Origin: Methylococcales bacterium
GTDB taxonomy: Bacteria; Pseudomonadota; Gammaproteobacteria; Methylococcales; Methylomonadaceae
Reading direction: 5' to 3'
Assembly (NCBI GenBank): GCA_026399095.1
Contig: JAPLRP010000061.1
Location: 1-64,000 of the forward strand
DNA length: 64,000 nt
Made by a program: the position numbers and the translations under genes. Under the pieces are notes generated by a model that had not been told where the DNA came from, searched no databases, and worked only from the letters and a program-made list of their open reading frames with translations. This document shows, piece after piece, positions 41,511-44,385 of the stretch. Each line of letters opens with the position of its first letter. The stretch's first letter is position 1.

Positions 41511-41750
41511 ACTCTGCCTTATAAACAGTGAACGATTAGGAAAGCGGTCAACGCTAAGATTAGCACAATTAAGACAACACATCCTCTGGAAAAAACAGCC
41601 ACCCCAGTACTTTAATATCCGCATGTTTTATAAAAGCCAAGGCGATTATGTGATCTATTACGTAACCTAGGCAAAGGATACCTCAGGGCCAGCCCCCCTT
41701 TATGTCCTTTATTTAGGTCGGGATTACAATCCCCAGCCAGCATAGTAGTG

Positions 41751-41813
41751 CTTGTACGTCTGTCCAGATAGCTCGTACGTCCGATCAGAGAGCTAGAGCG
41801 TCCGTCCAGATAA
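41751..41813. repeat. Three imperfect 21-bp tandem repeats
   Basis: cttgtacgtctgtccagatag / ctcgtacgtccgatcagagag / ctagagcgtccgtccagataa. Confidence 0.8.
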
Positions 41814-42459
41814 TCGATGGGGCCAGGTTAAATTAATCTTACCTAAATATATATTGCCATTGATTTAGTAATGTCCAAAGCAAGTTGGTTGTAAATTTAA
41901 CCGATGATGTGCGTGGGATAATGGATCGTATTATTGATCAAGGTTAATCTGAACCCATGAAAACCGACACGCCCGAAATAACCGCAGTTCGTGAAGCGAC
42001 TCCTGCCATAGATGCCTCTCGTTAGCCTGAAGTGAAGCTATATACACAGGAAAATATGGATTCATGACGAGGACTGATGAAGAAACTGCTTTTGCTGATC
42101 AAGTCGAGACAGCGTCTACAAGAATTATTCTATTTATAGGGTTTTTAATACCTTAACTCTAGGTAAATATTACCCTATGAATAGGGCTTTTAATGCCTAC
42201 TATTAGTAAAAAGTTATTTTTTTCATAACGTACTTAACCATCTATATATCTGCCTTTAAATACATAATAATTCAATATGATATATTTTTTTATGTATGAA
42301 TAAAATATTCAACTTTAAAAAATTATAACAATGTTTTTTGGCTTAGTTTTTGCTATTTCAATTGTACAAATATATATCTTTGCTTAAAAGAAAGGTGGAT
42401 TTGTAATTTATTGAAAGAAAGAGTAATTTTTTTAAATCAAAGCTCTAAGGAGTATCAAA

Positions 42460-43789
42460 ATGTTGCCTATAAATACAATAAATAAAATTTCAATTATTGC
42501 TGGGTTATTTCTTGCTATTAGCGTAAATATTGCAGTAGCAAACCCCCACTAAAGCCTTGTTAATATTTCCGGTATTTTACCCTGTTCCTCCCCAAAATAC
42601 CGCCCAAACAATTTATATGTATGATTGCTTCACCGATTCTACTTGTGCGTCACCTCGTCAGTCGTCAAATTATGGTTATATTACTAACGTACCCTCATTT
42701 CATGGCCCCGGTAATGCAACATGGGTAACCTTAGACACAGGTGGCGCCCATAGCTACTATAAATTATGGCAAAACACCGGCACTCCACGTTCTCCTGTTT
42801 GGCAGACTTGCCAACTCGGTATTCTTGCTAATGGAGTAGTTGCAACTGATCGAACTAATACTTGTGTAGGACCAGGAAAGATATCCAGCGGGTCTACCGC
42901 TCAAGTATTTCAAATTAATATGGGAGTAATCAAATTCCCTACTCCTCGATCACCAATTTTTCCAGCCCCCTCCCCCCACAAATATAATGATATGCCGACG
43001 CGTACCATAAGTTTTGAAAACACAACCAGTGATACAGATATCTGTATGAGTAGAGATACTCTTATCACGCATGCCCTATGTAGCGGTTATAATGTCATGC
43101 GTATTAATGCTAATACCAGATACGTATATAGCATTGCTAAAAATGGTGAAAATTCTCGTAATGCTCAAGTATTCGGAGAAAAGAATACGGGTAACGGGCC
43201 GGGGACTGCATGGAAGAAAACTGGAATTGTTTCCTATCAACATACGAACCTTTTAGAATGGAATATGTATCCAGTAGAAGCTATGTCGAGGACTACTCCA
43301 CTTAACAAAACAGATCACAGTATCGGCGCATCAACTATTGATATTTCATTAGTTAATGGCTTTAATACGGCTGTCCGTCTAATTCCAACTGAAGATATTG
43401 TGTGTTCTGTTTCAAAATCAGAAGGGGGGCCAAGTATATTCAATTTATATCCAGCTGGACGGCCTATGGCAAGCTTTCCAACATCATCATTAACAAAAAT
43501 TAAAGATATTTGTCCTCTAGGGTTTAATGCTGGTCAATCTGGTTGTTTCAGCCAATGTGCGCTGGCACATCAAAAAAATCTAAGTCAAGAGCAAATTGAT
43601 AGCAATTGCTGTACGGGGGATTATGATACTTACGCAACTTGTAATCCTGTTATCAGTCATAATTATATAAATGCTGTAACTAATCACTCACAGGGTGTTT
43701 ATGCATGGGCGTATAATGACTATAGGGGAACGTTTACCTGTCAAGCGGATGCAAGTTTTATTTACGAAGTAACTCAAACTAAATATTAA
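42460..43789 (+). pseudogene. Thaumatin-like secreted protein; signal peptide and mature domain separated by a frameshift at the C5 tract 42543-42547
   Basis: RBS AAGGAG then ATG 42460: MLPINTINKISIIAGLFLAISVNIAVANPH*; removing one C joins it to ORF 42557-43789. Thaumatin hallmarks: IDISLVNGFNTAVRLIPT, CPLGFNAGQSGCFSQC, NCCTGDYDTYATCNP, YAWAYNDYRGTFTCQADASFIYEVTQ. Confidence 0.75.
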
Positions 43790-43843
43790 TTTAGCTATTC
43801 ATAAAAGTTAACTTATTGATTTTTTTAATCTCTATAAATTGAA

Positions 43844-43894
43844 AATTAAGTGCACGAAAATAAACATGCTTTCATGAATCTTGTGCACTTAATT
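43844..43894. repeat. Perfect 12-bp inverted repeat AATTAAGTGCAC..GTGCACTTAATT
   Basis: Arms 43844-43855 and 43883-43894, downstream of the thaumatin-like gene. Confidence 0.75.
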
Positions 43895-43960
43895 AAAGTC
43901 CACTTAAAAATCCAAAAGCCAAGAATTTGCATAGGCATTCGTGATTAATTTTTCCTGACG

Positions 43961-44101
43961 ATGTTACGTTCGTTTTTATCCTTTTGGACAAAAAGAAAAA
44001 ACGAAGAACTTATTGGAATAGTGCTGAATTATTGCGAGCACAAAAAAGTATCTGAGTATTACAAACAAGTTCATGACCAAGAAGATGCTGTTTATACATG
44101 A
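43961..44101 (+). CDS. Small hypothetical ORF, possibly a remnant
   Basis: MLRSFLSFWTKRKNEELIGIVLNYCEHKKVSEYYKQVHDQEDAVYT*; no clear RBS or family. Confidence 0.25.
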   Translation: MLRSFLSFWTKRKNEELIGIVLNYCEHKKVSEYYKQVHDQEDAVYT

Positions 44102-44385
44102 CATCGTCATGCGCAAAGACTTTGCCACGACCTGTTACGGTTGCTCTTGTCAAAAACTGGATCGTTAGCTTGCAGATAGGCTTTTATAGCCTGATTGGGT
44201 TGACTCTTTTTATTATTAACCTTATTTTTAATCTAGCTAAACAATTTGATTGATTTAATCTACGAAAATCTTCAAAAGTTACAATAAGCAGCGCATTACC
44301 TAAAGGATGATAGGCTTTAAAATATAACAGACTGATTACTTTAGTATCTTTCGTGCTTTTCGTGGTCTCATTGCGGGTTTTAAGA

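What the first reader, a model, noticed from the sequence alone, without database searches (positions are those of the whole stretch)
42557..43789. Bacterial thaumatin-like protein in an AT-rich island
Cys-rich C-terminal motifs (CPLGF..GCFSQC..CCTGDYDTYATCNP..YAYND-type segment YAWAYNDYRGTFTC) and IDISLVNGFN closely echo plant/fungal/animal thaumatin-like proteins. Such proteins are uncommon in bacteria. The flanks are AT-rich and contain debris, suggesting horizontal acquisition. Function (glucan binding, antimicrobial or otherwise) is unknown.
Basis: partly seen in the sequence, partly recalled or inferred. Interest (0 to 1): 0.6.

Follow-up and report, generated by a model that had tools for sequence, protein, structure and literature searches.

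The report
Frame-broken bacterial two-domain thaumatin-like protein
A methane-eating bacterium carries a gene for a rare bacterial cousin of plant thaumatin-like proteins, fused to an extra undescribed domain and inserted where its relatives have nothing, but in this assembly its export signal is one base out of frame, so the copy is probably broken or mis-sequenced.

Summary
The ORF at 42557-43789 is real and encodes a thaumatin-fold protein: Pfam PF00314 at 51.6 bits (cut-off 27.4), and the AlphaFold model's best PDB matches are all thaumatin-like proteins, including a solved bacterial one. (1) The gene begins upstream: an ATG at 42460, behind a good ribosome-binding site, gives a textbook Sec signal peptide, but it is one base out of frame with the thaumatin part and stops at 42550-42552. 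As assembled, the exported protein cannot be made. (2) The ORF is two-domain: a conserved N-terminal all-beta domain unknown to Pfam or PDB, then a thaumatin domain keeping four of eight canonical disulfide pairs and three of five acidic-cleft residues. At least 14 bacterial proteins share this plan. (3) The gene is an insertion between maeB and nadA: two same-genus genomes have 381 bp there, against 2,875 bp here, and none of 34 congeners has the protein. A decayed DDE-transposase tail lies downstream. (4) The host is a Methylococcales methanotroph, and the closest proteins come from other Methylococcales, so a recent eukaryotic donor is not indicated. The gene itself is not AT-rich; its upstream flank is. 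Most likely function of intact members: secreted glycan binding (inferred).

The parts
42447..42452 (+). Shine-Dalgarno-like AAGGAG, 7 nt before ATG 42460
   Evidence: read directly
42460..42552 (+). Short ORF: Sec-type signal peptide (30 aa, AXA-like end 'AVA'), stops at TAA 42550-42552; one base out of frame with the thaumatin ORF
   Evidence: relatives have leader and mature part in one frame
42539..43003 (+). N-terminal all-beta domain, conserved in the 14-protein family (Cys85 and Cys103 invariant); no Pfam, NCBIfam or confident PDB match
43001..43789 (+). Thaumatin-like domain and stop codon: PF00314 over residues 254-401; first half recognised only by profile-profile comparison and predicted fold
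42557..43789 (+). The ORF given in the finding (TTG start, no ribosome-binding site of its own)
43844..43894 (+). Strong hairpin just downstream (125-nt fold z = -4.6), possible transcript end
43888..44100 (-). Decayed C-terminal end of a DDE (IS5-like) transposase gene; 70-80% identical to copies near contig ends in the same genome
42141..42459 (.). Upstream region, 22% GC, most AT-rich part of the window
41511..44385 (.). Whole maeB-nadA interval holding the insertion (2,875 bp here, 381 bp in G019 and G034)

Best explanation
The locus is a horizontally acquired, stand-alone gene of a rare bacterial family of exported two-domain thaumatin-like proteins (signal peptide, N-terminal beta domain, thaumatin domain), in a Methylococcales methanotroph. 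Intact members are most likely exported by Sec, oxidised in the periplasm, and bind beta-glucan-like or other polysaccharide at the remodelled cleft (Glu234, Asp262, Asp388), the N-terminal domain adding binding surface or placement. In this genome the leader and the mature part are one base out of frame, so this copy is most likely a recently broken gene or, less likely, carries a base error in the assembly. Shown: fold, family, architecture, insertion, frame break. Inferred: glycan binding and its biological use.
For: Fold and family: all 18 PDB hits under E 0.001 are thaumatin-like; hhalign prob. 99.5, E 6.7e-23. Family and architecture. Export: signal peptide here and N-terminal leaders in relatives. 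Disulfide logic: Cys pairs co-vary, e.g. 319/330 lost together in L012 and 24/30 present together only in the four Methylococcales proteins of the window's clade. Three acidic-cleft residues invariant in 14 of 14. Glycan link of canonical bacterial relatives: one spirochaete protein joins Thaumatin, three CBM6 stretches and GH16; others carry CBM6 or F5/8 domains. Eukaryotic members are associated with glycan-lytic or antifungal activity (PMC3048497). Insertion. Methanotroph: PmoA family. No conserved neighbours. Neighbouring genes align to relatives in unbroken stretches over about 15 kb, so the assembly is not generally error-prone.
Against: No activity or ligand was tested. Two of the five REDDD residues, including the arginine, are not conserved in the whole family, so the canonical ligand may not apply. 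A mature frame open for 410 codons with all key cysteines does not look decayed, which fits a sequencing error or a very recent break.
Confidence: 0.5

Rival explanations
1. The gene is intact in the living cell and the frame offset is a base error in the assembly; the protein is made and exported normally.
For: The 416-codon frame has no stops and keeps the family cysteines; synonymous codon usage is ordinary for the window (rank 11 of 37 from the low end); ribosome-binding site and leader are well formed.
Against: Neighbouring genes over about 15 kb show no frame breaks against relatives, so an error just here would be a coincidence.
Confidence: 0.35
2. Intact members are enzymes, endo-beta-1,3-glucanase-like, using the cleft Glu and Asp, and help the bacterium degrade algal or fungal glucan.
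For: [quoted passage not shown] Glu234, Asp262 and Asp388 invariant; a GH16-thaumatin fusion exists in another bacterium.
Against: Arg and one Asp of REDDD are not conserved in the family; methanotrophs do not need polysaccharide as carbon source (general knowledge); no glycoside hydrolase or uptake gene was seen next to the gene.
Confidence: 0.15
3. The protein acts on eukaryotes (protists, fungi, algae), as a defence protein or effector, comparable in role to Legionella LegT.
For: LegT (lpg1328) is listed among Legionella secreted proteins as having a thaumatin domain (PMC2824747), and thaumatin motifs occur in several Legionella (PMC4256840); family members include a Coxiellaceae MAG and Cysteiniphilum.
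Against: Family members have N-terminal leaders, and most hosts are free-living; no secretion-system genes lie beside the gene here; LegT was not compared.
Confidence: 0.15
4. The gene was transferred directly from a eukaryote to this bacterium.
For: The domain is far commoner in eukaryotes (general knowledge); the gene is absent in congeners.
Against: Closest proteins found are bacterial, from other Methylococcales, with the same extra N-terminal domain; codon usage matches the window. Eukaryotic genomes were not searched.
Confidence: 0.03

Closest known systems
Thaumatin family PF00314 (plant PR-5, osmotin, zeamatin, Pru av 2, Mal d 2)
   Same: Fold (Foldseek E down to 6.5e-8), four canonical disulfide pairs, E and two D of the acidic cleft, C-terminal YAY-D-TFTC motif
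   Different: Extra N-terminal domain; only 10 Cys in the thaumatin part instead of 16; Arg and one Asp of REDDD missing; 12-16% identity in structural alignments
Amycolatopsis rifamycinica thaumatin-like protein (PDB 7p22)
   Same: A solved bacterial thaumatin-like structure; matches the model at E 1.5e-6
   Different: About 220-residue chain without the N-terminal domain; 13-15% identity
Two-domain bacterial thaumatin-like proteins (Methylobacter tundripaludum L025, Methylotetracoccus oryzae L011, Thalassospira L024, G088 L004 and others)
   Same: Leader, N-terminal beta domain, thaumatin domain; invariant Cys and acidic residues
   Different: At most 37% identical; their leader and mature part are in one frame
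Legionella LegT (lpg1328)
   Same: Named as a thaumatin-domain protein of a gammaproteobacterium
   Different: Listed among secreted effectors; sequence not fetched or compared here

Membership tests
Thaumatin-like proteins (PF00314) | HMM score above the curated cut-off | tested here: met
   51.6 bits against 27.4; 14 of 14 family members match
Thaumatin-like proteins (PF00314) | Thaumatin fold | tested here: met
   AlphaFold model pTM 0.83; all PDB hits with E under 0.001 are thaumatin-like, TM-score by target up to 0.73
Thaumatin-like proteins (PF00314) | 16 conserved cysteines, eight disulfides (typical members) | tested here: not met
   10 cysteines in the thaumatin part; positions fit four canonical pairs plus Cys163/Cys175. 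Small TLPs with 10 Cys are accepted members (PMC3048497), so this marks a variant, not an exclusion
Thaumatin-like proteins (PF00314) | REDDD acidic cleft (typical members) | tested here: not met
   E234, D262, D388 invariant; Arg position variable; first Asp is Ser/Thr in 14 of 14. Not universal in accepted members either (13 of 18 in PMC3048497)
Thaumatin-like proteins (PF00314) | Secreted, N-terminal signal peptide | tested here: inconclusive
   Leader present at 42460 but one base out of frame; in frame in relatives
Thaumatin-like proteins (PF00314) | Glucan binding or hydrolysis, antifungal activity | not testable with these tools
   needs purified protein
Two-domain bacterial thaumatin-like family (defined here) | Conserved N-terminal beta domain before the thaumatin domain, invariant Cys85 and Cys103 | tested here: met
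Legionella LegT-type effectors | Sequence similarity to LegT and type IV secretion | not tested
   effector sequence deliberately not fetched; only the literature was used

The most novel reading that the evidence does not exclude
The N-terminal domain and the remodelled cleft define a separate bacterial branch of exported thaumatin-fold proteins with its own ligand, spread horizontally among Pseudomonadota and Thermodesulfobacteriota and used in contacts with algae, fungi or protists; the methanotroph copy has just been lost by frameshift or is switched by it.
Probability: 0.2. Interest if true: 0.5.

Novelty: new variant of a known kind. Interest (0 to 1): 0.33.

Why it matters
Bacterial thaumatin-like proteins are few and almost unstudied. 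This locus points to a coherent, uncharacterised two-domain branch with a partly dismantled acidic cleft, which would help separate what the cleft does from what the fold does. It also gives a clean insertion site for timing the gain, and shows that this copy should not be cloned as the TTG-started ORF and assumed functional.

Tried and rejected
Close relatives by single-sequence scans of genome contigs and viral contigs, plasmids and phages: none; only alignment-based or family-based searches found the family. Phage cargo: no viral or PHROG match by sequence; the BFVD hits are thaumatin-like proteins of plant, algal and giant viruses, which share only the fold. Conserved operon: none across 14 loci, apart from two related loci (L014, L024) that share local synteny. 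Fold of the N-terminal domain: no PDB match below E 0.04; the weak resemblance to CnaB-like and intradiol-dioxygenase beta sandwiches was not taken further. RNA element: no Rfam match. Promoter scan: no more sites than in shuffles. Foreign codon usage: not seen. Exact insertion junctions: the relatives' 381-bp spacer shows no alignable remnant in the window flanks. Other flank peptides: no Pfam match. No literature on bacterial thaumatin-like function was found beyond the Legionella genome papers.

Full report
Observation. The ORF at 42557-43789 is present and long beyond chance. Its C-terminal half matches Pfam Thaumatin (PF00314) at 51.6 bits against a cut-off of 27.4, over profile positions 91-203. 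phmmer against PDB sequences finds the cherry thaumatin-like protein 2ahn at E 0.0013. It is the only copy in a 2.77-Mb, 94-contig genome.

TTG 42557 has no ribosome-binding site. At 42460 an ATG, preceded by AAGGAG, opens a 30-codon frame with a typical Sec leader, MLPINTINKISIIAGLFLAISVNIAVANPH, ending at TAA 42550-42552. The thaumatin frame is open from 42539, one base out of register. In the relatives recovered, leader and mature part are in one frame. As assembled, the locus would make only a short leader peptide and no exported protein. Neighbouring genes from 39216 to about 54168 align to two congeneric genomes without frame breaks, so the assembly is not generally poor here. I therefore put a real break at about 0.6, an assembly error at about 0.35 and some switching or recoding at about 0.05. 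This is judgement, because the reads are not available.

What the protein is. An alignment scan of bacterial genomes found proteins with the same plan in Methylotetracoccus, Methylobacter, Thalassospira, Shewanella, Cysteiniphilum, a BD1-7 clade bacterium and MAGs of Coxiellaceae, Rhodospirillales, Lysobacterales and Syntrophobacteraceae, among others. With the order-level genomes G087 and G088 this gives a 14-member family (alignment A2). All members match PF00314 and nothing else in Pfam. The N-terminal 150 residues form a second domain with invariant Cys85 and Cys103. It is predicted to be all beta (pLDDT 73, pTM 0.73), with no PDB match better than E 0.04 and no convincing sequence match. 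The whole-protein model (pLDDT 78, pTM 0.83) matches only thaumatin-like structures at E below 0.001, including bacterial 7p22 from Amycolatopsis. Profile-profile comparison with canonical bacterial thaumatin-like proteins gives probability 99.5, E 6.7e-23, and aligns the first half of the domain as well.

Active-site and disulfide anatomy. By that alignment and known thaumatin numbering (own knowledge for the pairs), the cysteines 319-330, 334-351, 352-362 and 283-395 correspond to four of eight canonical disulfides. Pair 319/330 is lost jointly in L012, as expected of a bond. Cys163/Cys175 and, in the Methylococcales clade of the window only, Cys24/Cys30 are extra. Of the REDDD residues, Glu234, Asp262 and Asp388 are invariant in 14 of 14. 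The first Asp is Ser or Thr in all, and the Arg position is variable. The family is thus a thaumatin-fold branch with a partial acidic cleft. Disulfides were inferred from positions, not read from coordinates.

Host, rarity, origin. Loci of known organisms place the genome in Methylococcales, and a PmoA-family gene marks it as a methanotroph. Its genus was not named. PF00314 occurs in 8 of 311 genomes of the order including this one, five of them with this two-domain plan, in none of 34 congeners, and in 0 of 398 other sampled genomes of the phylum. The nearest proteins are from Methylococcales: L004 at 35-37% identity, then L006 and L011. The tree joins the window protein to L004 and L006 (96/92), though branches are long and the placement is unsure. 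In G019 and G034 the syntenic maeB-nadA interval is 381 bp; here it is 2,875 bp. This supports gain in this lineage, although loss elsewhere is not formally excluded. Downstream lies the decayed tail of a DDE transposase gene with copies near contig ends in the same genome. The gene's GC (40.0%) and codon usage are ordinary for the window; the upstream 319 nt are 22% GC, the most AT-rich part of the window. So 'AT-rich island' applies to the flank only, and a recent transfer from a eukaryote is not indicated.

How it most likely works. There is no conserved neighbourhood, so the protein probably acts alone. The leader, the disulfide pattern and the domain plan indicate an exported, oxidised protein. 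Canonical bacterial relatives are joined to CBM6, F5/8 and GH16 domains, and eukaryotic members are associated with glycan-lytic or antifungal activity (PMC3048497), so polysaccharide binding is the best inference. Hydrolysis, or an effector-like role as suggested by LegT in Legionella (PMC2824747), are rivals. None of this was tested biochemically.

Verdict. A genuine thaumatin-like protein, correctly spotted, but a member of a rare uncharacterised two-domain bacterial branch, and in this assembly out of frame with its own export signal. New variant of a known kind; moderate to low interest.

Noticed in passing
L022:17-2647: Spirochaetales MAG protein joining a Thaumatin domain, three CBM6 stretches and a GH16 domain: direct architectural link of a bacterial thaumatin-like protein to beta-glucan processing. 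The same MAG has several other thaumatin-like proteins (L020, L023, L029).
   Followed up: partly
L008, L009, L010: A different thaumatin-related group in Methylococcales matching only the central profile region (about positions 70-115), ending soon after the DISLVNGFN motif; apparently a truncated domain.
   Followed up: no
window 43844-43894: Strong hairpin (fold z = -4.6) with a perfect 12-bp inverted repeat between the gene and the transposase remnant.
   Followed up: no
window 41696-41808: Short tandem of three 21-bp repeats; the stretch has a second copy (87% identical) on contig C19 of the same genome.
   Followed up: no
window 44271-44385: Dispersed repeat next to nadA with copies on at least three other contigs.
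   Followed up: no
L025:10013-11215: Gene downstream of the Methylobacter thaumatin-like gene looks like it carries a Hint/intein-like segment (read by eye, not tested).
   Followed up: no
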